Below, in pieces: positions 11,542 to 48,186 of a DNA stretch of 64,000 nucleotides. The stretch comes from Candidatus Limnocylindrales bacterium (GTDB taxonomy: Bacteria; Desulfobacterota; Binatia; UBA1149; CAITLU01): assembly GCA_035571835.1 (NCBI GenBank), contig DATNBU010000002.1, positions 1-64,000 on the forward strand, given 5' to 3'. Below the pieces are notes generated by a model. That model had not been told where the DNA came from and made no database searches. It saw nothing but the letters and a program-made list of their open reading frames with translations. The position numbers and the translations under genes are program-made. Position 1 is the first letter of the stretch. Each line of letters starts with the position of its first letter.

Positions 11542-11575
11542 GAGAGTTCTCCCTTCGGAATTTTGCGGATGACCG

Positions 11576-21111: not shown

Positions 21112-24100
21112 TCAGTCGCGGCCCGGCAACCTTCGCTCTTCCACCGCTGCGGCCGGCTGAACCACCGGCACGCCTTCGGGCACCGTCGGCGAGAAGCTCG
21201 GCGTGACGAGCTCGTACGGCAGCACGAACGCGCGCGGCTTTCCGGCCGGCTTGTCGGAGACCGTGAACGGCTTGCCGCGCTCGAGGAACAGATCCTCCAT
21301 TTCGGCGCGCGAGAACGGACGCGAGCCGAGGCGGCCGAATACGCTGACCTGGTTGCCGCTTTCGTCGACCGCGCGATCGCGGTCGATTCCCTTCGACAAC
21401 GTGATCGCCGGCTCTTTCGTCTTGTACGATGCGATCAGGCGCGGCGTCGGCGTCGGGCTGAAACCGGAGTTGCCGGGCGTTTCGGTCGGCGCGATCAGCT
21501 GCACGACGCGCAGCCCGTTCTTTCCGTCGGCGACGTAGGCAAACACGCTCGCACCGGTGGCGCCGATGCGCACTGAGCGGACGTCGTTCATCTGTCCGTC
21601 GGCGTTGTACATCTGATGAAGGAACGGATGCTCGGGGCGCTCGATGTCGACGATTGCAAGGCCCTGGCTGCCGGCAGGAACGTACGCGTACGTGCGCGCC
21701 ACGTAGATCTCGCCGGCTTCGGCGAGATCGAGCCCGGCGACGACGCGCGGCCGGTCGAGCGACGTGACGTCGAGAACCTTCATGCCGTTGCCGTCGGTCA
21801 CGAACGCATAGCGGAACTGGACGGCAATCGACCTCGGATCGTCGAGCGCAATCGATGAAACCACGGCCGGATGAACGGGGTCGTCGATGCTGACCACCAC
21901 GAGTCCGTGCGGCGTCAGCACGTACGCAAACGATCCGGCAATCGTGATGTACCTGGCGCCGGTCAGCAGCCCGTCCGGATTGAACGATGCGACGCGCTTC
22001 AGGAAATTGTTCTGCGGATCGCCGTCGGTGAGCATGTCGGCGTCGACGACGACGAGGCCTTCCTCCGAATCCGTGACGTAGACGTAGCGATACAACGGAT
22101 GCATCGGCTGCTCTTCGTTTTCGGCAGCGTGCGGCCGGTCGTAGTGGATCGGCATGTTGGTCGGGAGCGCCACGCACGTGGCGTTCGGCGTCTTGATGTA
22201 CGTGCGCTGTCCGAGCGGCGAGACCGGCGCGGTGACGATGCGCTCGGAGAAGCCCTTGTTGTCGATGTTGGCCACGTCGAACACGCGCAGGCCGTCCGTG
22301 CCGTTGGCCGTGTAGAGATATTCGCCGCGAAGCTGCAGGCAGTGGACGGTCTGCGCCGAATGCTCGTGGCTCTCCTTCAACTGCGCGTCGTTGGCGACGT
22401 GCTTCTCGTATTCTTTCGGATAGGCGAGCTTGTGCAGGTTGCTGCCGATCACGGCCTGCGGCTCGTCCCATTCGGTCACGGCCACCGCTTCGATCCCCTC
22501 GTCCTCGCCGACCCATGCGAATCGGCCGACGAAGTTGACGAAGTTGGTGCCGAGGGTCAGCACCTGGGCCATCCACGCGTTGTTGTCGCCGGCGGCCGAC
22601 GGATGGCAGCTCGAGCACGGCTGGGTCTGTCGCGTGCGGACGGTGTGCGCGAAGTGCGTGTTGAACGCCTGGCTGCTGTAGCCTTCGCCGGAGATCGGAA
22701 GCTGCTGGATGTACAGCCGCTCGCGGTTGGCGTTGGTGGTGCTTATCATCACCGCGCTCGACGAGCGCACCGGTGCGATGATGTGCCCCTTGCTCGTCGT
22801 GTGCTTGCCGAGCATGAAGATGTCGTGGCGCAGGACCTGCGGGTTGTACGACGTCCAGTTGCGCGAGTCGCCGCCTTCGAAATGCTGCGAGTCCTTCTTC
22901 CAGTTGGCCTGCTGCGGCAGGTGGCATCCGAAGCAGCTGGTGACCCACGACGTGTGGCACGACGAGCACGCCATCTCGGTCTCCCCGTGCGCGAGCGCGT
23001 TCGGGTCGTTCGGGAACCCGCCCCACTGCCCATCCTTGCGGATGGTCTTCGCGTAGCGTGCTTTCTCGTTGTAGAGGCGCGGGTTGGTCGGATCGATCGT
23101 GTCGAGGACCTGCTTCACTTCCCACTCGACGTTGTCGTTGACCATCGAGCGCTGCATGAGGCGGCTCGTCGGTCCGTCGAACATCCATTCGAAGCGGCGC
23201 TTGCCGGACGGCGTGATGCCGTTCTCGAGACTGTGTCCGCCTTTCGGTGCGGCCGGACCGCTGGTCGCAAGACTTGCCTTTCTGGTCGCCGATCCGTGGC
23301 AGTCCTGGCACTGCACTTCGACGGCGTCCGGATACGCACCGTAGATGTTGCCGTCGCCGTGCGCGTCCTGGCGGAAGTGGCAGTCGACGCAGTGCATGCC
23401 CTTCTCCGCGTGGATGTCCATCAGCTGGACCGCGTCGTCGAGCTTGTCCGGCGCGTTCCAGTCGATCTTCGCGCCCTTCTTGTCGAGGAGATTTCCCTTG
23501 CGGTCCTGCCAGTACACCGCGCGGAAGATCCAGCCGTGGCCGTTGTAATCGGCAAAGCGCGTCTCTTTCGTGGGCAGCGTGCTGACCTGGCGCAGGAAAT
23601 CCTCGTTGGTCCACAGGCCGCGCACTGCCGCTTCTTCCGGATCGCGCTCGAGGCTCGTGTGCATCGATGCCGAATCCTTCGCGTTGAGCGGCGTCGGCGC
23701 AGAGACCGTCGGATAGCGCTGCTCCTTCGGCCACATCAGGTCGCCGTCGGTTTCGTAATCCCACATCTGGTAGCCGAAGTACGTGTTCACGAACGAGTTC
23801 GGCTGATGCATGTGGCAGACCATGCACTGGCTCGATGGAATCGCCTTGGTGAGACGATGCTCGATCGGATGGCCGGACTCGTCCTTCGGAATGGTCGGGT
23901 CGCCGCCGCGGTACGTGCCGGTATGGCCGGCCTTCGCATACGGCCCGGAGTGCACCGGATCGCGATCGTTCGCGTAGACCACGTGACACGCCGTGCATCC
24001 GCTCGAACGGAAGTCGCCGGGATGATCGTTGGTGCCGAGAAACGCGAGCATCGGATCGTTGAGCCGCGTCTTCTGAAGATTGAGCACGCCGGCACTGATG

Positions 24101-24954
24101 CGCAGGTCGGTCCCCGGGCCGCGCGTGCCGAGCTTTGCATCGGGAAGTCCGGGCTCGTCGAGAAACGGACCGAGGTTCGGGTTGCCGACTTCGGCGACGT
24201 TCGAGCGGTCGACGCGCCCGCCGCGCTCGAACGCGCGCACCGGATCCGGCGGATCGACGACGTTCCAGCGCGGCAGCGGAACCAGTGACGGCAGGACGCC
24301 GCGGGCCGCTTCTTCGGGAGTTGGCGGCTTCGCGCTCGAAATCCGCTGCGGCACGCCGTCGGCGCTGTACGATTCACCGAAGATATAGCGCTTGAGCTTC
24401 GTGATGCCGTTGTTGTACGCGGCGCCGCCCCACAGCATCGCCGACGTCGCCATCAGGCTCTTGTGAACGTGATCGACGTCTTCACGGTGGCAGTTGCCGC
24501 ACGTCTCGCCCGCGACGCGAAGATCGCCCGGATTCTTGAAGCGGATGTACTCGGGCGATTCGCGGTTGAGCAGCGTGTACGTGCGCTCGGGATTGGCGCT
24601 AAGGATGCGCGACGGATTCTTAGGATCCTTCCAGTCTTCGGGATGCCGCGGCAGTACGTGCGCGCGGTTCATTGCATTCGCGTAGTCGGCGCTGCCGGCC
24701 GCGAGCCCCGACGCGCGGATCGAGCTCGTTCCGCCGTGGCAATCGGTGCACCCGAGGTTGACCTGTCCCGACTTGTGCATCGGCTCGATGCCGTTGTGAC
24801 ACGTCAGGCATCCTTCGCTCTTGGCCGCCGCCTCGGCGTCGGTCTGGCGAAGCAGCAGCGTTTCGGTTCCGGCGAGCGCAGGCGCGGCCGGCCCGGCGAT
24901 CACGGCGGCAGCAGCGACCAGCAGGCACGCGGCGATATGCAGTCGAGTACGCAT
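21112..24954 (-). CDS. decahaem c-type cytochrome fused to LVIVD repeats
   Basis: A 1,280-residue exported protein with a Sec signal (to about residue 29). It has ten CxxCH haem sites between about 49 and 785: CLTCH, CTDCH, CGNCH, CTACH, CMVCH, CVDCH, CQDCH, CSSCH, CFGCH, CSSCH. Residues about 870-1125 are LVIVD-type beta-propeller repeats (LRVFDVANIDN, LVVVDADML, LVVVSIDDPVHP, MKVLDVTSLDRP, LAIVDIERPEHP). The product should be a periplasmic or surface electron carrier whose propeller may dock a partner. GGAGGAGG precedes the start. The porin-like gene ends 12 bp upstream on the same strand, recalling porin-cytochrome conduits. It is probably the last gene of a minus-strand operon beginning near 33951. 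Confidence 0.88.
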   Translation of the reverse strand: MRTRLHIAACLLVAAAAVIAGPAAPALAGTETLLLRQTDAEAAAKSEGCLTCHNGIEPMHKSGQVNLGCTDCHGGTSSIRASGLAAGSADYANAMNRAHVLPRHPEDWKDPKNPSRILSANPERTYTLLNRESPEYIRFKNPGDLRVAGETCGNCHREDVDHVHKSLMATSAMLWGGAAYNNGITKLKRYIFGESYSADGVPQRISSAKPPTPEEAARGVLPSLVPLPRWNVVDPPDPVRAFERGGRVDRSNVAEVGNPNLGPFLDEPGLPDAKLGTRGPGTDLRISAGVLNLQKTRLNDPMLAFLGTNDHPGDFRSSGCTACHVVYANDRDPVHSGPYAKAGHTGTYRGGDPTIPKDESGHPIEHRLTKAIPSSQCMVCHMHQPNSFVNTYFGYQMWDYETDGDLMWPKEQRYPTVSAPTPLNAKDSASMHTSLERDPEEAAVRGLWTNEDFLRQVSTLPTKETRFADYNGHGWIFRAVYWQDRKGNLLDKKGAKIDWNAPDKLDDAVQLMDIHAEKGMHCVDCHFRQDAHGDGNIYGAYPDAVEVQCQDCHGSATRKASLATSGPAAPKGGHSLENGITPSGKRRFEWMFDGPTSRLMQRSMVNDNVEWEVKQVLDTIDPTNPRLYNEKARYAKTIRKDGQWGGFPNDPNALAHGETEMACSSCHTSWVTSCFGCHLPQQANWKKDSQHFEGGDSRNWTSYNPQVLRHDIFMLGKHTTSKGHIIAPVRSSSAVMISTTNANRERLYIQQLPISGEGYSSQAFNTHFAHTVRTRQTQPCSSCHPSAAGDNNAWMAQVLTLGTNFVNFVGRFAWVGEDEGIEAVAVTEWDEPQAVIGSNLHKLAYPKEYEKHVANDAQLKESHEHSAQTVHCLQLRGEYLYTANGTDGLRVFDVANIDNKGFSERIVTAPVSPLGQRTYIKTPNATCVALPTNMPIHYDRPHAAENEEQPMHPLYRYVYVTDSEEGLVVVDADMLTDGDPQNNFLKRVASFNPDGLLTGARYITIAGSFAYVLTPHGLVVVSIDDPVHPAVVSSIALDDPRSIAVQFRYAFVTDGNGMKVLDVTSLDRPRVVAGLDLAEAGEIYVARTYAYVPAGSQGLAIVDIERPEHPFLHQMYNADGQMNDVRSVRIGATGASVFAYVADGKNGLRVVQLIAPTETPGNSGFSPTPTPRLIASYKTKEPAITLSKGIDRDRAVDESGNQVSVFGRLGSRPFSRAEMEDLFLERGKPFTVSDKPAGKPRAFVLPYELVTPSFSPTVPEGVPVVQPAAAVEERRLPGRD

Positions 24955-24966
24955 GACGCCTCCTCC

Positions 24967-26829
24967 TCAGAACACCAGCACCAGCTCGGCGCCGGCTTGG
25001 TAGAGCGTGCCCGATTGATAGATGTCGGCGAATCCGCCGAGCGGCTGGAACACCGCGACGAACGGCTTGACGATGACGTTGTTGTTCAGCCACGGGCGCC
25101 ATTCGGCGCCGAGGCTGATGTCGATGCCGATGTCGTTGCTGACCGACGCCTGCTTGAGCAGGATCTCGAGCGGCCGCGTCTCGACGAAGCGAAGGTAGCT
25201 CGCGTTACCGACCAGCTTCAGCGTCGGCGTCAGCTCCGCGCTCGCGCCGAGGTTGGCGATCACGATGCCGGGATTGACGAAGTTCGCCTGGCCCTGGATC
25301 TTGCTGCTGCGCAGGTCCGGAATGATGCTGTTCCTCTGCGTGACCGCGACGCCGCCGCGATCGGCAATGCGGATGCTCTGGCGGTTCCAGTAGCTGAACT
25401 CGCCGCCCATGATCTTCGGATTGTCGAGGATCGAGTCGAACCCGCGCGCGTGCGCGTCGCGCGGGTCGTCGTCGCCGGACGAGAAGAACGCGGAGGCCTG
25501 GTAGCGCATCCAGTCGCGGTCAAGTGACAGCTCGAGAAACGCGAGCTGCCCGTTGATGTCGGTACCGCGACCGGCGATCGGACTGTTCGAATCCTTGCCG
25601 ACGACTTCGTAGAGCGCGTGGCTCACGTTGATCGGGCCGAAATGGCCCTCGCCCGTCCAGCCGATGTAATACGCCTTGACCTGGTGCGGCTGCGCGATGC
25701 CGACCGGATCGGGACGTACGAGGAATCCCTGCTTGTCGAACTCGAGGCCGTCCTCGACGCCGTCGTCATGGTCGAGATGGAAACTGAACTGCGTCTGATA
25801 GCCGAGCTGCAGGAAATCCTGGATGTAGAGATTGCCGACGAAGACCTGCTGGTGGCGGATGTCGAACGTGTTCAGCTCGCTGTTGGTGTCCTTCTCGGCC
25901 TGGTAAAAATACAGCAGGTTGGCCTGGTAACGGTTGCCGTCGGCCGACCCGAACAGGCGCACGCCCTGGTTCACGTCCGAGAAGATCAGGCTGCGAAAAT
26001 CACTGTTGAACGGCTGGCGTCCGACGCGCACCGAAACCGAATCGTACCGCGTCGAGAGATCGGCGAGGTGCACTTCGACGGCGGCTTCCTGCAGCGCGAC
26101 GTCGCTGGTCGTGCGCGTGGTGCCGTCGCGCACGTCGGGGCTGACGTTGCCGCGTTCCTCGACGCCGAGATGGTTGACGTCGCCGACGGCCTCGACCGTC
26201 AGCTGCCAGTCGAACGGGCGGAACGCCGTCAGTCCTTTCTGCAGGTCGACGCGCAGCGCGAACTTCTGGTCGATGATGTCGGCGTTCTTGTCGCCGAAGA
26301 ACTTGTCGCTGCCGGGCCCCTCGGCGCTCGCTCCGCTCGGCGTCGGCGCCGAGCGGCCTTCGATCGACGTTTTCGAGATGCCGGTCAGCTTGAGGAAGAT
26401 CTCGTCGCCCCAGATCGGATAGTCGCCCTTGAGAATGTTGCGATTGTACGGATCGAACCACCGGTACGGCGACTTGAGGATGTTCCAGCGGTCACTCACG
26501 GGCTCGAGCACGGTGGCCGATCCGGTCGTGGCCTCCGCGGCCTGCTCTTCGGTCATCGGCGGCGCTTCGTTGGGACCGAGCACTCGCGGCGCAGCGGTTT
26601 CGTCCGGCGCAATCACCGGGACATCGGCGGCCGGCCCCGCGGCGTTCGGCGCGGCGGGCGGCAACGCAGCCGGCTGCGGCGCATTCGGTGACGGCGGTGC
26701 CGGTCGCGGTGCGTTCGGCGACGCGGCGGGAATCGTGTCGGCCGGCGCCGCGTTCGGTTCTTCGGCGCGTGCGATCGACGCGCCGATCACCAGGGCCGCA
26801 ATGAGAAAGAGGTTTGCTGCGGGCATCAT
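24967..26829 (-). CDS. outer-membrane porin-like beta-barrel protein
   Basis: A 620-residue protein with a Sec signal (to about residue 22), a Pro/Ala/Asn-rich linker (about 25-105) and a long region of alternating amphipathic strands that ends in a hydrophobic residue plus Phe (AELVLVF), the usual outer-membrane barrel ending. Residues such as VSVRVGRQPF and QANLLYFYQ recall alginate-export/DcaP-like porins, but I cannot name the family firmly. The start is at 26829, with a second Met one codon later that has slightly better spacing from AGG. It directly precedes the LVIVD decahaem cytochrome gene, so an outer-membrane conduit pairing is plausible. Haem-binding motifs are absent from the barrel itself. 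Confidence 0.75.
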   Translation of the reverse strand: MMPAANLFLIAALVIGASIARAEEPNAAPADTIPAASPNAPRPAPPSPNAPQPAALPPAAPNAAGPAADVPVIAPDETAAPRVLGPNEAPPMTEEQAAEATTGSATVLEPVSDRWNILKSPYRWFDPYNRNILKGDYPIWGDEIFLKLTGISKTSIEGRSAPTPSGASAEGPGSDKFFGDKNADIIDQKFALRVDLQKGLTAFRPFDWQLTVEAVGDVNHLGVEERGNVSPDVRDGTTRTTSDVALQEAAVEVHLADLSTRYDSVSVRVGRQPFNSDFRSLIFSDVNQGVRLFGSADGNRYQANLLYFYQAEKDTNSELNTFDIRHQQVFVGNLYIQDFLQLGYQTQFSFHLDHDDGVEDGLEFDKQGFLVRPDPVGIAQPHQVKAYYIGWTGEGHFGPINVSHALYEVVGKDSNSPIAGRGTDINGQLAFLELSLDRDWMRYQASAFFSSGDDDPRDAHARGFDSILDNPKIMGGEFSYWNRQSIRIADRGGVAVTQRNSIIPDLRSSKIQGQANFVNPGIVIANLGASAELTPTLKLVGNASYLRFVETRPLEILLKQASVSNDIGIDISLGAEWRPWLNNNVIVKPFVAVFQPLGGFADIYQSGTLYQAGAELVLVF

Positions 26830-26860
26830 GAAACCTGCTTCGCGGTGCCGGAACGACCGG

Positions 26861-27946
26861 TCAGAGCATTCCGAGCAGCCACAGGAGAACGAGCAGACTC
26901 GCCGCGCCTGCGAGCACGACCGGTACCACGACCTGCCAGCGCGTCTTTCGCGAATCTTCGCGCGGCTGCGGGTCTTCCTGATCGACGACCAGAAGCTCAT
27001 CGTCGCCGAAGCTGAGACGCATGCCGGTCTGAAGCTCGATCTCGTCTTCCACGATTTGGCCATCGACCATTACCCTCCGGCCTTCGATCGGAGCGAGATA
27101 CCAGCCGTCCTCGCGCTGCTCGATGCGGGCGTGCTGGCGCGAAGCGCTGGCCGAATACAGACGCACGTCGCATTCGAGCGAGCGACCGACGATCGCGACT
27201 TCCTTGTCGAGCCGCTCCACGCCCGCGAAGTCCGGCGGCAGGACGTGCTCGAGGCTGATCCACGGTCGTTCGGACCTGTCCTCCCACCGAACCGTCGACG
27301 CATCGGTCGAACGAAGCGAAACCACGCGCGTACGATCGGTGTCGTCGGCAGTCGCGATGCGTCCGGTTGCGGCTGGCTTTGGCGGAGCGGCCTTTGTGCC
27401 GCCAGCCGGCGGCTGTGCAGCAGCAGAAGCAGCGGGCTTTGGCGGTGCTGCGGCCGGAGGCGAAGGCTTCGCAGGTTCGGTAACCCGCGCTGGTTCGGAG
27501 CCGGGCGTTGCCGCTCTGGCCGGCTCGCGGGCTTCGGGAGCTTTGGCAGGCGGTGATGGTGCAGCCGCCGGTGTGGATGACGTTGTGGGCGATGCGGGCG
27601 GTTTCGCAGCGGGCGGCGATGCTGCAGGTCTCGATGTCGAAAGCGCCGCTGGAGGACCTTCGGGAACGGCAGTCGTTGCGTCGGAGCGCGACGGCAGAGT
27701 CGGCGGCGGAGCTTCGATCTGCACCGTGGATTCGTGAGGCGGCTTGCCGCGCGGAAGCACCTGCGTGACGTCGCCGTCCTCGTCTTCATCCGCGTGAGTC
27801 GCCACCGGAGCCGTCGGTGATTCCTGCGCAGGAACCGGCGCGGCGGGCGCAGGACGCTGCGCTTCTCCCGGACGCAGCTTCGGCGGCGCATCCGTGAGGA
27901 TGACGGTGCCGTCGTCGGGAGAATCCTTTTCCGGTTCGTCGGTCAT
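26861..27946 (-). CDS. tail-anchored FHA-domain protein
   Basis: A 361-residue protein. The first 240 residues are disordered, Pro/Ala-rich and dotted with acidic Thr motifs (GTVILTD, DVTQVLPRG, ESTVQIE) that look like kinase/FHA target sites. An FHA domain follows at about 245-330 with GRSLECDV and SASRQHARIE, so the core Gly-Arg and Ser/His pThr-binding residues are kept. A single hydrophobic helix (about 338-358) ends the protein, giving a C-terminal membrane anchor with the FHA domain in the cytoplasm. It lies 31 bp upstream of the porin gene and 41 bp downstream of the lipoprotein gene on the same strand. Role inferred: a scaffold that recruits phosphorylated partners to the membrane. 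Confidence 0.82.
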   Translation of the reverse strand: MTDEPEKDSPDDGTVILTDAPPKLRPGEAQRPAPAAPVPAQESPTAPVATHADEDEDGDVTQVLPRGKPPHESTVQIEAPPPTLPSRSDATTAVPEGPPAALSTSRPAASPPAAKPPASPTTSSTPAAAPSPPAKAPEAREPARAATPGSEPARVTEPAKPSPPAAAPPKPAASAAAQPPAGGTKAAPPKPAATGRIATADDTDRTRVVSLRSTDASTVRWEDRSERPWISLEHVLPPDFAGVERLDKEVAIVGRSLECDVRLYSASASRQHARIEQREDGWYLAPIEGRRVMVDGQIVEDEIELQTGMRLSFGDDELLVVDQEDPQPREDSRKTRWQVVVPVVLAGAASLLVLLWLLGML

Positions 27947-27987
27947 CGCGCTCGGCGTGCTCGTTTCGTCATCGCAGCAAGTGTCGA

Positions 27988-29934
27988 TCAGTCGCCGGGA
28001 TTTCGGTTGAACTTGAGATACGGCAGACGGATGTCGCCGCGCACCTGGATCTGGTCGGCGCGGATGTCTTCGGGTGCTTCGAACCCGGGTGCAGCCTGCG
28101 TACCGGCGGCGGTCACGAGATCGTCCTGCTCGACGCCGTCACCGCTGACACCGAAACCACCTGCCAGCACGCCGTCCACGTAGAGCGGCGCACTGCCGGG
28201 AAAGAACACGATTCCGTTCTGGCGGCCGTTGGCCGGCTCGCCCGCGTTCGTGCAGGGGTTTGCCGAATCGTTGACGAAGATCCGGCGGAACGGGCCCGGA
28301 TCGCTTCCGTCGATTCCCGGCGGAAAGAACGGCTGCGACGCGAAGCTGATGGTGCGGTTCGTGATCGCCGTGCCGGCCGGAAAGAAGAACTCGTCGTCGC
28401 AGCCGGCTACCGACGGGTCGGGACAGTCGCGGCGATCGAGCGGAAGGATCGCTTCGCTGCTGAAGTACGTCACGTTGCGCGCCTTGGCGACGGCGACGTC
28501 GATCGAAAACACCGTCGCATCCGGCATGCGGAACACACCGAGCAACTCGCCATTGAGGTCGCTGATCGCAAGCACCATCGCGGTTCGCTGCTGGAGCGGG
28601 AGCCGGATCGCGGCGCGCACGCGCTGCGCTTCGGCAAGGCCTGCATTGATGATCGATTCGACATCGTCCGACGAGAGCGGTCCGCCGCCGGCGCTCGCGC
28701 CGCGCGGGGTGACGAGCCAGCCGGAAGCAGCCACATCGGCAACCGGCGGATCGGCCGGATCCAGCGGATCGACAATGAACGGTTCGGTAAGCGGCGCGCC
28801 GGTCCCGATGCCGCTGACGTGAGGGTCGTGCTCGACTTCGGGAATCTCGATGCCGTCGACGAAGATCACCGGCTCGATCGACCGCGGCAGCGGCGGAAGA
28901 ATTCCAAAGCGGCACGATGTCGCGCAGCATGCGGGCATATCGACGCCCGGCGTCGGAGTGCACAGATCGGTCAGGCCTTTGGGCTTGACCGTCGGGATCC
29001 CGGCGTTGTCGCCCGCAAATGCGCGAGCCGCGAACTCGCCGGCAGCGAACGCGTCGTCGCGGTCGTCACGGCGGAGAATCTGCTGCGGCGCATCGAATGC
29101 GGCGACCGGATCCGGGTCGACTGCAATCCCGCGAACAGCCACTCCGACGCCGCCGACCATCACGCCTTCGCGATAAATCGGCACTGCGCCGGGCAGCGTC
29201 GCGATGCCGGTCGTGCAGCCGCACTTGTCGTCTTCGACGACGCTGCTCGTGCAGGAGAGGTCCGCGTCGAACAGTGTCGCGAGACCCGTCGCGCGCGGAA
29301 CCAGCGCTGCGTCCGATCGGCGCCGGTCGACATCTGTGCCGTCGCCGTTCGGCAGATCCGGACGAACCGGTCCGAGACCCGGAAGCGCATCGAAGCTGCA
29401 GCCGCGGTTGGTGTTCTCGATGCCGAACAACGCGGCCGCGCCCGTGTTGCGGATATCGGGCGGAAAATGCTCGCCGCTCAGGAAGCGCACCGAACGCGAC
29501 GTGAGAGGCGTTTCGTTCGCACTGAAGAATGCTGCGGTGCGCGCAAGCTGGACCGCGCGGTTGATCACTGCGCAGTCGGAAGAGGAGTCGAGAGGAATGT
29601 CGGCAAGCGGGCAGGCGGTGACGCATTGGTCCGCATAGTACGCCTCGTCCCTGCCGAAGTTGGTCGCGACGCCCTGGATGACGCCGCGACGATCGACGAC
29701 CGCAACCGCGACCGGGCGCGACTGCGCGCGAGCGGCGCTCTGCATGATCGCGCGCACCTGGTCGCCCTGCAGGACCAATGCACTGCTGGCTTCGTCGCGC
29801 GCGGGAAAATCGGGCGCATCCTCGCTGCTCTCGCCTCCTCCGCCGCCGCCGCAGGCGACGAGGTTCGCGCCGAAGACAGCGACGCCCGCAAACAGGAGCG
29901 CGCGCAGGAAGGTGCCGGGCGTTGAGAATGTCAT
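27988..29934 (-). CDS. lipoprotein with two GlcG/HbpS-like domains
   Basis: A 648-residue exported lipoprotein. The signal ends in the lipobox LVAC with Cys28, followed by a Gly-rich spacer. Two related domains (about 50-300 and 425-640) each show the GlcG/HbpS (DUF336) pattern: a helix, then AVAVVDRRGVIQGV or AMVLAISDLNGELLGVFR, then an Ala-rich helix ending ARTAAFFS or ARNVTYFSS, then a Gly-rich GVMVGGVGV or GVLAGGFGVSGDG. HbpS relatives bind haem or small ligands and some are redox sensors. Many extra cysteines occur between the domains. The location among cytochrome genes suggests haem or redox-ligand handling in the periplasm; the substrate is unknown. Confidence 0.72.
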   Translation of the reverse strand: MTFSTPGTFLRALLFAGVAVFGANLVACGGGGGGESSEDAPDFPARDEASSALVLQGDQVRAIMQSAARAQSRPVAVAVVDRRGVIQGVATNFGRDEAYYADQCVTACPLADIPLDSSSDCAVINRAVQLARTAAFFSANETPLTSRSVRFLSGEHFPPDIRNTGAAALFGIENTNRGCSFDALPGLGPVRPDLPNGDGTDVDRRRSDAALVPRATGLATLFDADLSCTSSVVEDDKCGCTTGIATLPGAVPIYREGVMVGGVGVAVRGIAVDPDPVAAFDAPQQILRRDDRDDAFAAGEFAARAFAGDNAGIPTVKPKGLTDLCTPTPGVDMPACCATSCRFGILPPLPRSIEPVIFVDGIEIPEVEHDPHVSGIGTGAPLTEPFIVDPLDPADPPVADVAASGWLVTPRGASAGGGPLSSDDVESIINAGLAEAQRVRAAIRLPLQQRTAMVLAISDLNGELLGVFRMPDATVFSIDVAVAKARNVTYFSSEAILPLDRRDCPDPSVAGCDDEFFFPAGTAITNRTISFASQPFFPPGIDGSDPGPFRRIFVNDSANPCTNAGEPANGRQNGIVFFPGSAPLYVDGVLAGGFGVSGDGVEQDDLVTAAGTQAAPGFEAPEDIRADQIQVRGDIRLPYLKFNRNPGD

Positions 29935-29947
29935 CGCAGGTTTTCCG

Positions 29948-32344: not shown

Positions 32345-32469
32345 GGTCACCTTGCGGGAAGTTTTCCTGCCGGCGAACGTCGCCGGCGAGGCGCGGCAAC
32401 CTACCTTTCAGGCCTTCATAGTGTCAAGGAAACCGGCGGCGGATCAGAGGCTTCCGCCGGCCGCGACGG

Positions 32470-33951
32470 TCATTCTCCGGCAAAGAGCTTGCGGTGGATC
32501 TCGGACAGGAGCCGGGAGAATTCGGCCGGGTCGTAGCGGAAGCGATCGGTCGCATCGATGAGCTTTCCGAGGTCGGGATCGATACCCTTGCCGCCGCTGC
32601 AGCGCGTTCCCCCCATCAGATCGAAAGCCGGAGTACACAGCGCCTGAATCGACAGCACGGTCTGCTCCGGTGTGCCGGCGGTGTACCACCATGGAAGGTT
32701 CACTTCGTCGACGCTCTCGACGTTCGAGCTCGGCGAGGAAGAGTGGCTGAAGCGCCGCACCTGCTTGAGAGTGGATGCGCCTGACGTGATCCGGCTGAGG
32801 AGCATCTGCGCCTCCGATCGCGTGACCGACCTCGAAGCCAGGCGGCGCGAGTATTCCGCGGCCGCCGCGCTGAGCTCGCCGGCACGCCGCTCGGCCGACG
32901 CCGCGTCGCTGCCGGCAGCAGCGACGAGCTGTTCCCACGCGGACGAGAGACTGGCCTTCTCGCCGGGCAGAAGCACCGAAAGCACGATCTCCGACATCGC
33001 AAAGTGGCCGCGCGCCTGCCGCAGTCCGTCTTCGACCAGCTTGTGATGACAGTTGTAGCAGTTGCGGTCACGGAAGTGCGGGCTCTTGCCGAGCGACTGG
33101 TAGTCCGAGTCGCCCGCACGCTCGGCAATCATGGATGCTGCATGGCGAAGCCCGACCAGCTGGCCGATGCTCCACAGCGTCGGATCTGCGCAGTCGGGAC
33201 TCGACGGACGATCTTCCGAATCGTTCCAGTGCTTCATCAGCTGCGCGTAGGCGACCATCTCGAACTGCAGCGGCGGATGGCCGCCGGCGAGGATCTCATG
33301 ATCGATCTCGACGTGGCATTGCGCGCATTTCTCGGCGCGCAGGCGGAAATTGGCGTTGTCGTAGAAGCCCTTCGCGAGGAACTCGGGCTTCTTCTGCTTC
33401 CAGTCGCTCTGGCTGTGTGCCTCTTTCCAGAATTCCGAGCCGCCGTGGCAGTGCTCGCACGTGACGCCGTCCTTGCGCTGGTAGTTTCCGCCGGGCATCG
33501 CCGTGGCCGCCGGAGCATGACAGACGAGGCACTTCTCGCTCTGCGTCGGGTTGATCTGCATGTAGCGGCCGATCGCCTGCGACTCGGGCCGCAGCAGCGT
33601 CTCGTACGATCGGCTGTGGTGGTCGACGCGCTTGTTGCGCCACTGGGTCCAGGCCCACTTCCACGAGCTCGGCACGTCGCGACAACCGGTGTGCGGAGGA
33701 TTGGAAGGAACCGCCCCGCCGTGGCACGCCGATTTTCCGCACGACGTGTCTCCGAAGAATCTGGCCTCGGTGTCCGCGCGAGCGCGCGGCACCGCGACGA
33801 CCGCGATCGAGAGAATGGCCGCCGTCAGCAGGCCGCTGCGGGGAGAGAATGGAACGAGTGCCCGGATCGTTCGTTTGCCTGAGCTCTGTACCGGCGGATA
33901 TGATTCTCGCCGCTCGTCACGACGGAACCGGCGAAGATCGAAGGCAAGCAT
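32470..33951 (-). CDS. multihaem cytochrome c (c554-like)
   Basis: A protein of about 493 residues with a hydrophobic export segment at about 40-58 (LLTAAILSIAVVAV, then PRARA). Four standard CxxCH sites are seen: CLVCH, CEHCH, CAQCH, CYNCH. A fifth, expanded site CGKSACH near residue 67 fits a CX4CH haem motif. The spacing and the motifs HSRSYE and EFWKEAH resemble cytochrome c554/NrfB-like proteins that pass electrons in the periplasm. The ATG at 33951 is the best of two starts, because the alternative at 33984 would overlap the divergent gene. It heads the minus-strand redox operon and is divergent, with 22 bp between start codons, from the cNMP/FHA/Fe-S gene. Confidence 0.82.
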   Translation of the reverse strand: MLAFDLRRFRRDERRESYPPVQSSGKRTIRALVPFSPRSGLLTAAILSIAVVAVPRARADTEARFFGDTSCGKSACHGGAVPSNPPHTGCRDVPSSWKWAWTQWRNKRVDHHSRSYETLLRPESQAIGRYMQINPTQSEKCLVCHAPAATAMPGGNYQRKDGVTCEHCHGGSEFWKEAHSQSDWKQKKPEFLAKGFYDNANFRLRAEKCAQCHVEIDHEILAGGHPPLQFEMVAYAQLMKHWNDSEDRPSSPDCADPTLWSIGQLVGLRHAASMIAERAGDSDYQSLGKSPHFRDRNCYNCHHKLVEDGLRQARGHFAMSEIVLSVLLPGEKASLSSAWEQLVAAAGSDAASAERRAGELSAAAAEYSRRLASRSVTRSEAQMLLSRITSGASTLKQVRRFSHSSSPSSNVESVDEVNLPWWYTAGTPEQTVLSIQALCTPAFDLMGGTRCSGGKGIDPDLGKLIDATDRFRYDPAEFSRLLSEIHRKLFAGE

Positions 33952-33973
33952 CCGGACTATCTTCACTATCTTG

Positions 33974-35875
33974 ATGAGCAGCAATTCGACTATAGACTTC
34001 GGCCTTTCATCCGGTCAAGCCATCGCGCCCGAACAGCTCGCCGAGATTCCGTTCTTTGCCGGACGCAAGTCGAACTTCGCCGACAAGCTGCGCGAGAACC
34101 TCGTCCATCGCGTGACCGGCGAGCCGATCCGCGCTGCAGTGATCCGCGAATTCAAGGCCGGCGACACGATCTGTGAAGCAGGAGCGTACGGATCGACGGC
34201 CTTCCTGATCCTCGAAGGCGCGGCCACCGCATTCGTTCCGGATGCGGCCGAGCCCGCACTGCCTCCGGGCCGCACGGCTCGCTCGCTGCGCCGCCTTGCG
34301 CGCCTGTTCTCACGCCGTACCCGCTCCGAGAAGCCGGTCGCTGCGCGCGTCGGCATCGGCGAGGTGACTTCCAGCGCGACGCTGCACCGCAGCGTTGCCG
34401 CGGCCCCGCGCAAGCTCGGGCCCGGCGACTTCTTCGGGATCGACACCTGCATCAACTTTCATCCGCGCGAAGCGAGCGTGCGCGCCGAGACCGACTGCCG
34501 CGTGGTCGAGATGCTGCGCTCGGTGCTCGACACCGTGCGATCGAGCGGAAAGTCGGGAGCCGCCGTCGAGGACTTTCATCGCGGTGCGACGATCCGCGGC
34601 GCGCTGTCTGCGCAGGAGCTGTTCGGTGCGCTCACGCCCGAGCAGCGCGAGCGGCTTGCGGAAGCCGCCGAGCTCGTCACGCAGGACGACCTCGACAACG
34701 GCGTGCTCTACGAGGAGGGCACCGACGCCGACAGCCTGCTCGTGGTCGCGAGCGGCACCGTGAAGCTGTCGCGACGCATGCCCGGAGGCGAGCGCATTCT
34801 TACCTACGCCGCGCGCGGTACGGCGCTCGGGCTCGAAGCGCTGCTGGTCAAAGATCCGGTGCGCCAGCTCGTCCTGCGACGGATCGGTCCGAGCGGTGCG
34901 GCCACCGAGAGCGTACCGCTTACCGGAACGGTGACGATCGGCCGCCGCAAATCGGCCACGATTCCGTTCGGCCCCGAGCACGCGAGTCTCAGCCGGCGCC
35001 ATTGCCGCTTCGAAGTGCGCGAAGGCGACGTGCAGGAAATCCGCGTATTCGACGAGAACACCGACAACGGCACGTTCGTAAACGGCGCGCGCATCCAGGA
35101 GGCGATCGTCGGCGTCGGCGACCGCGTCACGCTCGCCGAGGACTACACGTTCGAAATCGCCGAAGTCGCGGCGGGCGGGCCGACGCGGGCGCGCGCGGCA
35201 ACGGCCACCGCGCTCGACAACTGCGAGATCGTCCGCATTCCGGTTGCGGCCGTGCGCGAAGTAGCCGGGAACGACAAGCGCATTGCCGACGTCGCCGACG
35301 AGCTCAGCCGGATCCTTTCGACGACGGCGCCTTCGGCTCCGGCCGAGCAGGCGTTCCTCAAGAAGATCGTCGACCTCAATCTGTACAATTCGCAGAACAC
35401 GCTGCTGATTGATCTCGAGCGCTGCACGCGCTGCGACGAATGCGTGCGTGCGTGCGCCGATGCCCACGACGGCGTCCCGCGTTTTACGCGCGACGGGCCG
35501 CGCTTCGGCAAGTACCTGGTGACGCTCGCGTGCCGTTCGTGCACCGATCCCAAGTGCATGATCGGCTGTCCGGTCAGCTCGATTCGACGCACGGAGTCGC
35601 TCGAAGTCCACATCGAGGACTGGTGCATCGGTTGCGGCCTGTGCGCGAACAACTGCCCGTTCGGCAATATCAACATGGTCGATCTGGCCGCGCCGCAAGG
35701 TCCGGCCGAACCGCTAGGGCCGGTGGATCTGACGTCCGGGAAACTGCGCGCCACGGTTTGCGACCTGTGCTCCGGGCTCGACGGCCCAAGCTGCGTGTAC
35801 GCGTGCCCGCACGATGCGGCGATCCGCGTCAAGCCGGCAGACTTCCTCGCACCCGCCGATCTGCAAGTACTGTGA
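33974..35875 (+). CDS. cNMP-binding/FHA/four-[4Fe-4S] chimera
   Basis: A 633-residue cytoplasmic protein. Residues about 25-215 form a cyclic-nucleotide-binding domain with an Arg/Pro-rich insertion. A second cNMP domain (about 225-450) is interrupted by an FHA domain (about 316-398: TIGRRKSATIPFG, SLSRRHCRFE, NGTFVNG), after which the last cNMP strand and helix resume (CEIVRIPVAAVREV). Residues about 480-625 are a DmsB/HybA-like polyferredoxin with four clusters: CTRCDECVRAC, CRSCTDPKCMIGC, CIGCGLCANNC and CDLCSGLDGPSCVYAC. A b-type membrane gene follows after 7 bp and a decahaem gene follows that, so electrons probably pass from this protein to the membrane. Control of a polyferredoxin by cyclic nucleotides and phosphothreonine would be unusual. 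Confidence 0.85.
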   Translation: MSSNSTIDFGLSSGQAIAPEQLAEIPFFAGRKSNFADKLRENLVHRVTGEPIRAAVIREFKAGDTICEAGAYGSTAFLILEGAATAFVPDAAEPALPPGRTARSLRRLARLFSRRTRSEKPVAARVGIGEVTSSATLHRSVAAAPRKLGPGDFFGIDTCINFHPREASVRAETDCRVVEMLRSVLDTVRSSGKSGAAVEDFHRGATIRGALSAQELFGALTPEQRERLAEAAELVTQDDLDNGVLYEEGTDADSLLVVASGTVKLSRRMPGGERILTYAARGTALGLEALLVKDPVRQLVLRRIGPSGAATESVPLTGTVTIGRRKSATIPFGPEHASLSRRHCRFEVREGDVQEIRVFDENTDNGTFVNGARIQEAIVGVGDRVTLAEDYTFEIAEVAAGGPTRARAATATALDNCEIVRIPVAAVREVAGNDKRIADVADELSRILSTTAPSAPAEQAFLKKIVDLNLYNSQNTLLIDLERCTRCDECVRACADAHDGVPRFTRDGPRFGKYLVTLACRSCTDPKCMIGCPVSSIRRTESLEVHIEDWCIGCGLCANNCPFGNINMVDLAAPQGPAEPLGPVDLTSGKLRATVCDLCSGLDGPSCVYACPHDAAIRVKPADFLAPADLQVL

Positions 35876-35882
35876 TGTTCGC

Positions 35883-36773
35883 GTGCTGATCAATCGCGAT
35901 CATCGCGCACCGGCGGCCGCATTCGCGCTGGCGACCATCGGAGCCGGCCTTTATTACCGGCATTACGCAACGACCGCTCTGTATGGTCCGTCCGGCGGAA
36001 GCTTTGCCGGGCTTTGCTACGGAATCGCCGGAACCACGCTGATGGTACTGGCTGCGCTGCTGTCGGTTCGAAAGCGCTTCCGCACGCGCCGCATCGGAAG
36101 CGCGCGCGCATGGATGACGCTGCACCTGTGGGGCGGGCTGCTCAGCGTGCCGCTCATCCTGTTTCACAGCGGCTTCGCTCTAGGCGGGCCGCTCACCACG
36201 GCGCTGATGGTGCTGTTCGCAATCGTCATCGTGAGCGGCCTCGCCGGTCTCATGCTGCAGCAGGTTCTTCCGCGGCTGATGACCGACCTGCTGCCGGCCG
36301 AGACGCTCCGCACACAGATCGAGCATGTCCGTGCGCGCCTCGCGGCCGACGCGTACGACCTGGTCGCGAACGTGACCGGACCGATCGCCGAAGCGGCCGA
36401 AGAGCAGACGTGGCTGCAGGCCGAGAAGAAAGCCGGGTGGAAAGCCGAGCCGCGGCGTGAGCCGGCATCCGCTCCGCAGGCCGGGGCCGAGCCGCTGCGC
36501 GCGCTCTACGTTGCGTACGTAAGGCCGTATCTTCGGCGCAACGCCGGCTCGCGCATGCCGATGCCCGATCTTCGGGCGGCGGCACCCGACATGCCGCCCG
36601 AGCTGCTGCCGCGCATCGAACAGCTGCGCGCGATCTGCGACGAGTCGAGGCAGCTCGATCTGCAGCTTCGCCTCCATGCGTGGCTGCACAACTGGCTGTT
36701 CGTCCACGCACCGCTTTCGATCGGGCTGTTCCTGCTCGTCGCGATCCACATCTGGTTCGCGCTGCGGTACTGA
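35883..36773 (+). CDS. probable dihaem b-type membrane electron carrier
   Basis: A 296-residue integral membrane protein with about four transmembrane segments. Histidines sit in or near the helices: HLWGGLLSVPLILFHSG (about 79-95), and LRLHAWLHNWLFVHAP plus LLVAIHIWFALRY near the C-terminus, a pattern expected for b-haem ligands. A soluble loop of about 130 residues lies between helices 3 and 4. It sits between a polyferredoxin and a decahaem cytochrome, so the natural reading is a quinone- or ferredoxin-linked transmembrane step. I chose the GTG at 35883, 7 bp after the upstream stop; an ATG at 35814 would overlap the upstream gene by 62 bp. Family assignment is not certain. Confidence 0.72.
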   Translation: MLINRDHRAPAAAFALATIGAGLYYRHYATTALYGPSGGSFAGLCYGIAGTTLMVLAALLSVRKRFRTRRIGSARAWMTLHLWGGLLSVPLILFHSGFALGGPLTTALMVLFAIVIVSGLAGLMLQQVLPRLMTDLLPAETLRTQIEHVRARLAADAYDLVANVTGPIAEAAEEQTWLQAEKKAGWKAEPRREPASAPQAGAEPLRALYVAYVRPYLRRNAGSRMPMPDLRAAAPDMPPELLPRIEQLRAICDESRQLDLQLRLHAWLHNWLFVHAPLSIGLFLLVAIHIWFALRY

Positions 36774-36775
36774 CG

Positions 36776-38215
36776 ATGCTGTCGAGCAAGGACATCGCAA
36801 GGCGCCTGCGGCTGGCGGGCTATCCGGGGCGCGACACGTTCCGGCGCTACTACGTCGCCACCGCGCTCGTGTGCATGGTTTCGGCTCTCGGCTGCTGGCT
36901 GGTGATGCACTGGTTCCTCGGACCGCGCCAGTACCTGCCGCGACCGATCTCGAGCAATCACGCCCTTTTCGGTGACCGCTGCGAGAGCTGTCATGACGCC
37001 TTTCAGAACGTCACCGACGCCGCGTGCCTCGGCTGCCATTCGGCGCGCGTGCATGCGCCGAACGAGGTCGGCACTCCGCAGTGCGCGCACTGCCACGTCG
37101 AGCATCGTTCGACCGATGTGTTCCTGTCGGTCAGCAGCAACGCGTGCGTCGCGTGTCACGCGGACCTCGAGACCAGCGGCAAGGACGCCGTCGTCGAGCG
37201 CCGCATCGCGACTTTCGCCGCGCATCCCGAGTTCAATGCGCTTCGCGAAGGAAAACGCGACCACGATCCGGCGCGGCTTCGCTTCAATCATCGCATTCAC
37301 CTGACGTCCGACCAGATTCCGGAGAACGAGCGCCCGCTCGGCTGCCCGAGTTGTCACCGCATCGACCCGCAGGGCAGGCTCATGCAGCCGGTTCGTTTCG
37401 CGACCGACTGCAAGCGCTGTCACCAGCAGATCGTCGAGGGGCCGACCGGAAGCATCGAGGCGCTGCACGACACGCCGGAAGTGATCCACGAGGATCTGCG
37501 ACGGCAGCTGCTCGATGTCGCGGCATCGATCGGGACCGTCACGTCGGCGGAGCTGCGCAGCCAGCTCGACAAGATCGCAACGCCGTCACCGGAGCTGCTG
37601 TCTCCGCCGCACATCGTCGGACGCGTGCCGCGGCCCGGCTTCAGCAAGGAACGCCTGTCGGTCGCCGCGCTCGAAAAGGATCTCTACAAGCCGTTCGTGG
37701 CTCCCGGCACCGACGGCACGTCGCCGACGGCGCCGCTCTACGAGCTGAACAAGGGCTGCTTCCTGTGCCACTACGAAGATGGTCCGCGCGAAGATCCTGC
37801 CGCGATGCCCACTGACCCCGCTAGCCCAAGGATCGCGCCGACGGCCGTCGCCGCACGCTGGCTGTTGCGCAGCGAATTCTCCCACCGGCGTCACGAGCTG
37901 ATGCCGTGCGAGTCGTGCCATCCGCATGTCGCGGAGAGTCGCGAGACGGCCGACACGAACCTTCCGGACAAGGCCGTCTGCCAGCGCTGCCACGTCGACG
38001 GCGCACGCGCGTCGGCGGGAGCCGTCTGCATGTCGTGTCACCTGTACCACGACACGTCGAAGCGTCGCGATGCCGGCACGCTCGCGTCGCACGGGAACGA
38101 GGCGGAGTGCGGGGAAAAAGGGAATTGTGGGCAAGGCGCGGCCAAGCGCGCGCGCTCGGCGCCGCTGCGGACGCAGGGGTGGTGGGAGATTCCGGGGGGC
38201 GCGGCGCCCAAGTAA
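36776..38215 (+). CDS. membrane-anchored decahaem cytochrome c
   Basis: A 479-residue protein with an uncleaved N-terminal membrane anchor (about 21-43, YYVATALVCMVSALGCWLV). Ten CxxCH sites follow: CESCH, CLGCH, CAHCH, CVACH, CPSCH, CKRCH, CFLCH, CESCH, CQRCH, CMSCH. Extra histidines in FNHRIHL and FSHRRHEL are likely sixth haem ligands, as in c3/NapC-type multihaem proteins. Its ATG begins 2 bp after the b-type gene's stop, so the three plus-strand genes form one operon. It is likely to receive electrons from the membrane and pass them to periplasmic or outer-membrane cytochromes. The Ala/Arg-rich tail has no visible function. Confidence 0.88.
   Translation: MLSSKDIARRLRLAGYPGRDTFRRYYVATALVCMVSALGCWLVMHWFLGPRQYLPRPISSNHALFGDRCESCHDAFQNVTDAACLGCHSARVHAPNEVGTPQCAHCHVEHRSTDVFLSVSSNACVACHADLETSGKDAVVERRIATFAAHPEFNALREGKRDHDPARLRFNHRIHLTSDQIPENERPLGCPSCHRIDPQGRLMQPVRFATDCKRCHQQIVEGPTGSIEALHDTPEVIHEDLRRQLLDVAASIGTVTSAELRSQLDKIATPSPELLSPPHIVGRVPRPGFSKERLSVAALEKDLYKPFVAPGTDGTSPTAPLYELNKGCFLCHYEDGPREDPAAMPTDPASPRIAPTAVAARWLLRSEFSHRRHELMPCESCHPHVAESRETADTNLPDKAVCQRCHVDGARASAGAVCMSCHLYHDTSKRRDAGTLASHGNEAECGEKGNCGQGAAKRARSAPLRTQGWWEIPGGAAPK

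Positions 38216-44531: not shown

Positions 44532-48186
<3,655 letters not shown>

What the first reader, a model, noticed from the sequence alone, without database searches (positions are those of the whole stretch)
21112..38215. 17-kb redox island joining multihaem cytochromes with FHA and cNMP signalling domains
Two divergent gene sets encode three multihaem cytochromes (two with ten CxxCH sites), a porin-like barrel, a b-type membrane protein, a haem/ligand-type lipoprotein, a tail-anchored FHA protein, an FHA-bearing flavin reductase-ferredoxin and an FHA/cNMP-bearing polyferredoxin. The parts can be ordered as NAD(P)H to ferredoxins to membrane b-haems to periplasmic decahaem to outer-membrane porin-cytochrome. 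Control of such a chain by phosphothreonine and cyclic nucleotides is, to my knowledge, not described as a system.
Basis: partly seen in the sequence, partly recalled or inferred. Interest (0 to 1): 0.85.

Follow-up and report, generated by a model that had tools for sequence, protein, structure and literature searches.

The report
Electron conduit genes with signalling domains
A bacterial gene cluster that looks built to move electrons from inside the cell to its surface carries, and sits beside, protein-kinase and second-messenger signalling parts, and related clusters occur in many bacterial groups, so electron export may be switched directly by cell signals.

Summary
In detail: nine genes at 21.1-38.2 kb encode two decahaem and one tetrahaem cytochrome, a barrel, a two-b-haem membrane protein, an HbpS-like lipoprotein, a tail-anchored FHA protein, a flavin reductase with two FHA domains and [2Fe-2S], and a ferredoxin with two cNMP-type domains plus FHA. 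The gene set is kept in five relatives. Relatives of the large decahaem number 234, and most components recur in the 80 loci examined. The redox core resembles porin-cytochrome clusters already in print. I did not find the signalling layer in print: cNMP domains in 57 of 59 cytosolic subunits; FHA, PP2C, cyclase and kinase genes among the commonest extra neighbours; FHA-like domains fused to the second decahaem; repeated acidic-Thr motifs in the tail-anchored protein. Phosphothreonine-dependent assembly is therefore likelier than cNMP gating here. Control is inferred; nothing shows it biochemically.

The parts
21112..24954 (-). large decahaem cytochrome with C-terminal LVIVD (propeller-type) repeats, 1280 aa
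   Evidence: 10 CxxCH; LVIVD E 1e-19; 234 relatives in named genomes
24967..26835 (-). outer-membrane beta-barrel, about 18 strands, AlgE-like fold; start inferred
   Evidence: AlphaFold model pLDDT 78; best PDB match AlgE E 9e-16, TMq 0.46
26861..27946 (-). tail-anchored FHA protein; Pro/Ala-rich N-terminal region with repeated [DE]xTx[VIL] motifs
   Evidence: FHA E 3e-12; 18 motifs in 6 orthologues, 0 of 10000 shuffles as high
27988..29982 (-). lipoprotein-like protein with HbpS-like domain
   Evidence: PF03928 E 7e-17; homologue in 62 of 80 loci
29948..32350 (-). FAD/NAD(P) reductase + FHA1 (degenerate) + FHA2 (canonical residues, GarA-like) + [2Fe-2S] ferredoxin domain
32470..33951 (-). 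tetrahaem cytochrome, C554-like; start inferred
   Evidence: 4 CxxCH; PF13435 E 5e-9
33974..35875 (+). 2 cNMP-type domains + FHA + Fer4 polyferredoxin; start inferred
35874..36773 (+). inner-membrane protein with two WX3HX13H and SGXXG (two b haems predicted), PCC3/PCC4-type; start inferred
36773..38215 (+). membrane-anchored periplasmic decahaem cytochrome; start inferred
   Evidence: 10 CxxCH; conserved in 56-row alignment
40691..42592 (-). FHA-GAF-adenylate/guanylate cyclase, next to the cluster also in the same-genus genome
42693..44531 (+). cNMP-patatin phospholipase-like protein (neighbour, link uncertain)
44512..48186 (-). Ser/Thr protein kinase; best window match of the kinase gene inside the G016 cluster
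48218..49534 (-). PP2C phosphatase; 75% identical gene near the cluster in G001
49267..50553 (+). PP2C-cNMP fusion
50599..52758 (-). Ser/Thr protein kinase (link uncertain)
52765..53550 (-). PP2C phosphatase (link uncertain)
60453..63869 (-). Ser/Thr protein kinase (link uncertain)

Best explanation
It is a porin-cytochrome-type electron conduit fed from the cytoplasm, whose cytosolic docking is signal-dependent. Inferred electron path: NAD(P)H -> FAD of the reductase -> its [2Fe-2S] domain -> the Fer4 clusters of the ferredoxin -> two b haems of the inner-membrane protein -> membrane-anchored decahaem -> tetrahaem -> large propeller-decahaem at the barrel. Inferred control: a Hanks-type kinase phosphorylates the acidic-Thr repeats of the tail-anchored FHA protein; the canonical FHA2 of the reductase, and perhaps the FHA of the ferredoxin, bind these at the membrane so that the soluble donors meet the b-haem protein; PP2C reverses it. 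In many relatives the same cytosolic subunit carries canonical cNMP cassettes and would be switched by cAMP or cGMP instead. Shown here: genes, haem and haem-ligand motifs, kept gene set, FHA/cNMP domains, kinase/phosphatase/cyclase neighbours, conserved FHA2 binding residues, motif enrichment. Inferred: direction of electrons, extracellular endpoint, phosphorylation, docking.
For: Parts and motifs. Gene set kept in five relatives. Co-occurrence over the same 58 genomes, the window's own included: large decahaem in 12, all 12 with a ferredoxin hit (partial in five), against 3 of the other 46; FHA reductase in 7, all 7 with both. Homologues in 80 loci: barrel 78, tetrahaem 64, HbpS-like 62, ferredoxin 60, decahaem-2 57, b-type 53, reductase 50. 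Both WX3HX13H motifs in 42 of 43. FHA2 residues GR, SLSRxH, GSxNG kept in 7 of 7; its best solved matches are GarA and OdhI. cNMP in 57 of 59 cytosolic subunits. Neighbour families: FHA 11, PP2C 9, CHASE2-cyclase 8, Ser/Thr kinase 7 of 80 loci. N-terminal extension on decahaem-2 in 39 of 55; FHA hit in 28 of 56. Acidic-Thr motif 15.5 per 1000 aa against 1.9 in other window proteins.
Against: Window ferredoxin: first cNMP cassette lacks the consensus Glu, second lacks more. Reductase FHA1 is degenerate; ferredoxin FHA has S->G in five of seven. Decahaem-fused FHA-like domains keep GR in 32 of 39 but the Arg of SRxH in none. The Thr motif was chosen after seeing the sequences; with it fixed, 11 neighbouring FHA proteins gave only 11 against 5.5 expected (129 of 5000 shuffles as high), and reductase/ferredoxin homologues and cyclases were enriched too, so it is not specific. 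The reductase's own acidic-Thr site occurs in the window genus only, 2 of 7 orthologues. The FHA/PP2C-versus-cassette contrast rests on three origins. Cyclases are common, 21 hits in the genome, one here. Several neighbours come from one clade. An 18-strand barrel is narrower than MtrB-type barrels (recalled), so how haems cross it is open. No expression or biochemistry.
Confidence: 0.45

Rival explanations
1. The FHA-like and cNMP-like domains are structural docking modules of a membrane redox complex, as the FHA-like domain of YscD/PrgH is (recalled), with no phosphothreonine or nucleotide input; kinase and phosphatase genes nearby are bystanders.
For: Decahaem-2 N-terminal domains: Arg of SRxH in 0 of 39, and 29 of 56 members hit the YscD cytoplasmic-domain model; window cNMP cassettes and FHA1 are degenerate.
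Against: FHA2 keeps the pThr-binding set in 7 of 7; both cNMP cassettes fit the consensus in 34 of 57 relatives, at least one in 41; PP2C, FHA, kinase and cyclase genes recur as extra neighbours.
Confidence: 0.3
2. Electrons run inward: an extracellular donor such as Fe(II) or Mn(II) is oxidised at the surface and the chain reduces quinone or NAD(P)+ (the direction that He et al. drew for PCC4).
For: Same type of inner-membrane protein as PCC3/PCC4; several carriers are cultured genera known to me as aerobes (recalled; names).
Against: An NAD(P)-binding reductase plus two ferredoxin types suits output from NAD(P)H; the motifs allow both directions.
Confidence: 0.3
3. Not a wire to minerals but a periplasmic/outer-membrane reductase for a particular substrate, as the Geobacter ext cluster is for selenite/tellurite; the HbpS-like lipoprotein and propeller would bind the substrate.
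For: Weak match of the decahaem to ExtM, 97.8 bits against a cut-off of 800; barrel resembles AlgE and small-molecule porins; ExtI is a porin implicated in selenite/tellurite reduction and not needed for Fe(III) citrate.
Against: ExtM match far below cut-off; no Rieske hit among the nine proteins; ExtI barrel not compared directly.
Confidence: 0.2

Closest known systems
PCC3 / PCC4 porin-cytochrome clusters (He et al. 2017, PMC5566968; abstract, passages and part 5 of section 3 read)
   Same: Inner-membrane protein with two WX3HX13H and SGXXG; porin; decahaem and tetrahaem; Fe-S protein beside the membrane protein in PCC4 subgroup II
   Different: Here 10, 4, 10 haems instead of 4, 5, 10 (PCC4) or very large haem numbers (PCC3); LVIVD-decahaem, HbpS-like protein; FHA, cNMP and kinase/PP2C layer. 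'FHA', 'cyclic nucleotide' and 'cNMP' do not occur in its main text; its Supplementary Figure 4 was not seen
'Group 1' PCC of a 2026 cave/groundwater metagenome study (PMC13264449; section 18 and passages read)
   Same: Large decahaem gene of 4-5 kb beside a porin of about 20 strands, with a ferredoxin-NADP reductase nearby in 7 of 11; one of its PCC-bearing MAGs is a Limnobacter, a genus whose isolates carry the present cluster
   Different: Identity with the present family is inferred from the description; 'FHA', 'cyclic nucleotide' and 'kinase' do not occur in its main text
Geobacter extHIJKLMNOPQS selenite/tellurite cluster (PMC5877670; passages read)
   Same: Porin, decahaem, tetrahaem lipoprotein, b cytochrome together
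   Different: Rieske protein and rhodanese instead of reductase/ferredoxins; ExtM similarity far below family cut-off
GarA / OdhI phosphothreonine switches (solved structures; function recalled)
   Same: FHA2 sequence and pThr-binding residues; acidic-Thr-x-V-F type sites (recalled for GarA)
   Different: Here the FHA is built into a redox enzyme rather than a free inhibitor
MtrCAB (PMC8805035; passages read)
   Same: Decahaems plus barrel as an outer-membrane conduit
   Different: Barrel about 18 strands and AlgE-like; the paper calls Parahaliea mediterranea DSM 21924 mtrCAB-lacking, yet that strain carries the present cluster (L115)

Membership tests
PCC3/PCC4 inner-membrane protein | two WX3HX13H motifs | tested here: met
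   window W100/H104/H118 and W294/H298/H312; 42 of 43 rows
PCC3/PCC4 inner-membrane protein | SGXXG motif | tested here: met
   window residue 141; 39 of 43 rows
PCC3/PCC4 inner-membrane protein | five transmembrane helices | tested here: inconclusive
   model shows several long helices, pLDDT 90; topology not predicted
PCC4 cluster | periplasmic cytochromes with 4, 5 and 10 haems | tested here: not met
   10, 4, 10 CxxCH
PCC3 cluster | very large haem numbers in low-complexity cytochromes | tested here: not met
   at most ten haems each; low complexity not measured
MtrCAB | MtrB-type barrel | tested here: inconclusive
   model about 18 strands, best PDB matches AlgE; MtrB strand number recalled
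MtrCAB | OmcA/MtrC-family cytochrome | tested here: not met
   TIGR03507 listed only for the tetrahaem, 25.9 bits against 209.3; PF22113 below its cut-off in decahaem-1 and tetrahaem, weak hits in 17 of 56 decahaem-2 rows
ext selenite/tellurite cluster | ExtM equivalog | tested here: not met
   97.8 bits against cut-off 800
phosphothreonine-binding FHA | GR, SRxH, NG residues | tested here: met
   reductase FHA2 in 7 of 7; FHA1 not; decahaem-fused FHA-like domains not, 0 of 39 with the Arg
phosphothreonine-binding FHA | binds phosphothreonine peptide | not testable with these tools
   needs a binding assay
CRP-type cyclic-nucleotide-binding domain | phosphate-binding cassette GE...RxA[TS] (consensus recalled) | tested here: not met
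   absent from both cassettes of the window ferredoxin and its six orthologues; at least one met in 41 of 57 relatives
TrxR-like ferredoxin-NAD(P) reductase | FAD/NAD(P)-binding domains related to FNR | tested here: met
   Pyr_redox models; 3ab1 ferredoxin-NADP reductase E 1e-8 over residues 26-248; coenzyme choice and activity not tested

The most novel reading that the evidence does not exclude
A widespread family of trans-envelope electron conduits whose current is set directly, after translation, by phosphothreonine and cyclic nucleotides: kinase/PP2C/FHA and cyclase/cNMP inputs are interchangeable modules on the same redox subunits, with lineages switching between the two. The window lineage would be the phosphothreonine form, with a membrane-tethered multi-phosphothreonine scaffold that gathers the reductase and ferredoxin at the b-haem protein.
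Probability: 0.33. Interest if true: 0.88.

Novelty: new variant of a known kind. Interest (0 to 1): 0.7.

Why it matters
Multihaem electron-transfer systems are usually thought to be controlled by transcription and by acceptor supply (recalled). A conduit with built-in cNMP and FHA domains, next to kinases, phosphatases and cyclases, would mean a cell can open or close electron export quickly without new protein. Cultured carriers exist (strains of Limnobacter, Parahaliea, Chromatocurvus, Steroidobacter, Zhongshania, Stagnimonas), so it can be tested directly, and it raises the question of why such bacteria keep a surface electron outlet at all.

Tried and rejected
Rejected: chance clustering of FHA (binomial P from 2e-6 to 1e-12 in six genomes, with intervals taken after seeing the hits). 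Recent acquisition of this stretch: G+C is even at 64-69%, no tRNA, no Rfam hit; not tested further. 'Known complex with incidental FHA': FHA or cNMP recur on the same subunits across phyla.

Weak or negative. The cassette-versus-FHA/PP2C contrast: 0 of 41 loci with at least one canonical cassette have an FHA or PP2C gene nearby, against 11 of 16 without (Fisher 2e-8), but the tree needs only three changes and the sign test gives p 0.5, so a 'signal switch' is suggested, not shown. Two reductase-only rows (L039, L044) were dropped before that count; L039 was scored as FHA-bearing by hand, and the window row was added by hand. Many loci are cut by contig ends, so absence of neighbours is soft. 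The regular expression was too strict (it missed L049) and was replaced by column scoring. Foldseek gave no PDB match for the b-type protein at E below 0.5; VIA-align rows reached Z 10 with helical sensor domains, within what its notes give for helical models. The large decahaem was not modelled; by sequence its profile matched only a 39-residue stretch of octahaem nitrite reductases at E 0.001. Nine tests of the Thr motif: high in the tail-anchored protein, reductase/ferredoxin homologues (some near-duplicate rows), cyclases and, weakly, FHA neighbours; not in kinases, b-type or decahaem-2; low in PP2C and the large decahaem. Garber et al. 2024 (PMC11475568, parts 1 and 2 of 3 read) describes no FHA or cNMP layer; passages of PMC12016527 and PMC10732223 added nothing. 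Deng et al. 2018 was not held. Literature searches behind 'not found in print': (open-licence papers only); supplements could not be opened.
Full report
What is there. Translation gives nine genes in two divergent sets. On the minus strand: a 1280-aa decahaem with LVIVD repeats, a barrel, a tail-anchored FHA protein, an HbpS-like lipoprotein, a reductase with two FHA domains and a [2Fe-2S] domain, and a tetrahaem. On the plus strand: a ferredoxin with two cNMP-type domains, one FHA and Fer4 clusters, an inner-membrane protein, and a second decahaem.

More than chance. Five of the six Pfam FHA hits of the whole genome lie at 27.0-42.5 kb of this window. In seven genomes that bear the cluster, the window's included, 25 of 38 FHA hits are on contigs with cluster genes. 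For six of these genomes I took the span of the hits as the interval after seeing them; the binomial probabilities are 2e-6 to 1e-12, so they are flattered. In ten named carriers chosen because they have FHA, PP2C or kinase genes nearby, FHA hits per genome number 3 to 12. In eight of them I mapped hits to the cluster locus by coordinates: 2 of 3 (Chromatocurvus), 2 of 3 and 2 of 4 (Parahaliea), 2 of 6 (Zhongshania), 3 of 12 (Steroidobacter), 4 of 5 (L044), 4 of 8 (L092), 2 of 12 (L058). L065 was matched by eye only (2 of 12), and L040 was not mapped.

Gene set in relatives. The FHA reductase was found in 7 of 58 genomes, the window's own included, and the full-length ferredoxin in the same seven. 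In five of the other six the region could be read across: large decahaem, barrel, HbpS-like, reductase, tetrahaem, ferredoxin, b-type, second decahaem and an FHA protein all have a match there; order and extra genes vary, and in G023 the FHA protein matches by its FHA domain only. In the sixth (G055) the genes lie on separate short contigs. The large decahaem occurs in 12 of the 58; all 12 have a ferredoxin hit, against 3 of the other 46 (Fisher 5e-10). In five of these 12 (G005, G015, G024, G031, G037) there is no FHA reductase hit and the ferredoxin hit is partial. It lies about 3-5 kb from the decahaem in two, 20-26 kb in two, and on another contig in one. In the class at large the FHA reductase was found in 9 of 148 genomes, own included.

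Beyond the lineage. One scan of named genomes with the large decahaem gave 281 pattern matches, 234 relatives, 80 kept. They include KSB1, Zixibacteria, Ignavibacteria, Nitrospirota, Nitrospinia, Acidobacteria, Marinimicrobia and many Proteobacteria, with strains of Limnobacter, Parahaliea, Chromatocurvus, Steroidobacter, Zhongshania and Stagnimonas. Of the 80 loci, many cut by contig ends, the numbers with a homologue are: barrel 78, tetrahaem 64, HbpS-like 62, ferredoxin 60, second decahaem 57, b-type 53, reductase 50, cyclase 15, tail-anchored FHA protein 7. In most loci the reductase and ferredoxin matches fall in one protein of about 800 aa, Pyr_redox + two cNMP + Fer4 in those looked at singly; the window lineage has the split form, as does the Ignavibacteria locus L044. 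cNMP hits 57 of 59 members of the set; at least one miss is a stand-alone reductase row. One ferredoxin also has a PilZ domain (L049).

Signalling neighbours. I clustered all other open frames of 110 aa or more in the 80 loci (1127, including spurious ones). The families seen in most loci were FHA proteins (11), CcmAB (10), CcmHI (10), PP2C (9), CHASE2-adenylate cyclase (8), Ser/Thr kinase (7) and a small unknown protein (7); one representative of each named family was checked by Pfam. In eight loci PP2C and FHA genes follow the tetrahaem gene; these eight form one gammaproteobacterial clade in the decahaem tree (one is labelled only Proteobacteria). The four Limnobacter cyclases likewise count as one lineage. 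Kinase and FHA genes come with the cluster in the Ignavibacteria and two KSB1 loci. In the window the same kinds of gene follow at 40.7-63.9 kb: FHA-GAF-cyclase, cNMP-patatin, three kinases, two PP2C, one PP2C-cNMP fusion. Three of the genome's seven kinase-domain hits are in this window. The FHA-cyclase adjoins the cluster in the same-genus genome; in G036 a cyclase-FHA gene lies one gene away from the second decahaem. A kinase lies inside the G016 cluster. Cyclases as such are common, 21 hits in the genome and one here, so that neighbour alone proves little.

FHA-like domain on the decahaem. In 39 of 55 complete homologues of the second decahaem more than 100 residues precede the membrane helix; 28 of 56 scanned, the window included, hit FHA and 29 the YscD cytoplasmic-domain model at E up to 0.01. 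GR is kept in 32 of 39 and the Arg of SRxH in none; the seven without GR are all members of the clade with separate FHA and PP2C genes. So these copies look more like docking domains than phosphothreonine readers. The window homologue has no such extension; there FHA sits on the reductase, the ferredoxin and the tail-anchored protein.

Do the domains look able to bind? Reductase FHA2 keeps GR, SLSRxH and GSxNG in 7 of 7 orthologues; FHA1 does not; the tail-anchored FHA keeps GR and SRxH in 6 of 6; the ferredoxin FHA keeps GR, with SRRH in two and GR(R/K)H in five. The best solved matches to FHA2 are GarA and OdhI, and the reductase part matches a ferredoxin-NADP reductase. The ferredoxin's first cNMP cassette keeps the Arg but not the Glu; the second has lost the pattern. 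Among 57 relatives assessed both cassettes fit the consensus in 34 and at least one in 41; six of six loci with a CHASE2 cyclase have a canonical first cassette. FHA or PP2C genes occur in 11 of 16 loci without a canonical cassette and 0 of 41 with one, but this is three changes on the tree and not significant by independent pairs.

A possible phosphothreonine scaffold. The region of the tail-anchored protein before its FHA domain holds 18 [DE]xTx[VIL] motifs in six orthologues (1165 aa); shuffles average 1.24 and none of 10000 reaches 18; 22 other window proteins average 1.9 per 1000 aa against 15.5 here. The motif was defined after reading these sequences. With the motif fixed, 11 neighbouring FHA proteins gave 11 against 5.5 expected (129 of 5000 shuffles as high), CHASE2 cyclases 17 against 8.5, reductase/ferredoxin homologues 130 against 72, kinases 6 against 5.8, PP2C 1 against 4.2. 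A similar site before FHA1 of the reductase is present in the two genomes of the window's genus and not in the other five. That such sites are kinase targets and FHA ligands is an inference from GarA/OdhI (recalled).

The membrane and outer parts. The b-type protein has four invariant His in 43 rows, both WX3HX13H motifs in 42 and SGXXG in 39, which He et al. 2017 give for the PCC3/PCC4 inner-membrane protein. It modelled well (pLDDT 90) without a clear PDB match. The barrel modelled with about 18 strands and matches AlgE best.

What is known. PCC4 has a porin, cytochromes of 4, 5 and 10 haems, this inner-membrane protein, other redox genes and in one subgroup an Fe-S protein; haem numbers differ here. 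A 2026 paper describes a group of 11 clusters with a 4-5 kb decahaem gene, a porin of about 20 strands and, in 7, a ferredoxin-NADP reductase, very likely the same redox family. Neither main text contains FHA or cyclic nucleotide; He et al.'s domain figure is in a supplement I could not open. MtrCAB and the Geobacter ext cluster are further off. So the redox core is a new variant of a known kind, and the signalling layer is what I did not find described in the searches listed under Tried and rejected.

Judgement. That this is a trans-envelope electron-transfer cluster I hold at about 0.75; that its cytosolic FHA/cNMP domains report signals rather than only dock, about 0.5; that the window lineage uses phosphothreonine rather than cNMP, about 0.65 given the former.

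Noticed in passing
window 42693-44531 and 49267-50553: cNMP domain fused to a patatin-like phospholipase, and cNMP fused to PP2C: two more cNMP effectors beside the cluster.
   Followed up: partly
window 39072-40406: 444-aa protein with a weak HNH match between the redox cluster and the signalling block; in the same-genus genome G001 the FHA-cyclase adjoins the decahaem gene directly.
   Followed up: no
window 53-19002: Left flank holds glycogen debranching enzyme, glycosidase, aquaporin-type protein, GMC oxidoreductase, glyoxalase-type protein, phosphoesterase, trehalose-phosphate synthase and phosphatase.
   Followed up: no
window 53641-58854: 1737-aa DUF11/FG-GAP repeat protein inside the kinase/PP2C block.
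   Followed up: no
L049:17387-19294 and L049:13627-14475: PilZ domain in the cNMP-ferredoxin, and a cNMP-DUF1003 protein beside the decahaem.
   Followed up: partly
L054, L059, L103, L112: Type II secretion ATPase family near the cluster in four loci; might serve to export the surface decahaem.
   Followed up: no
L075, L082, L087, L089, L096, L097, L100, L102, L105 and one more each: Cytochrome c maturation genes (CcmAB, CcmHI) next to the cluster in ten loci each.
   Followed up: no
alignment A7, one member: One homologue of the second decahaem has a WD40 propeller (E 6e-46) in the same reading frame; not traced to its locus.
   Followed up: no
G029 (L035:5062-8119): Cytochrome c assembly protein, glutamyl-tRNA reductase and porphobilinogen deaminase genes upstream of the reductase.
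   Followed up: no
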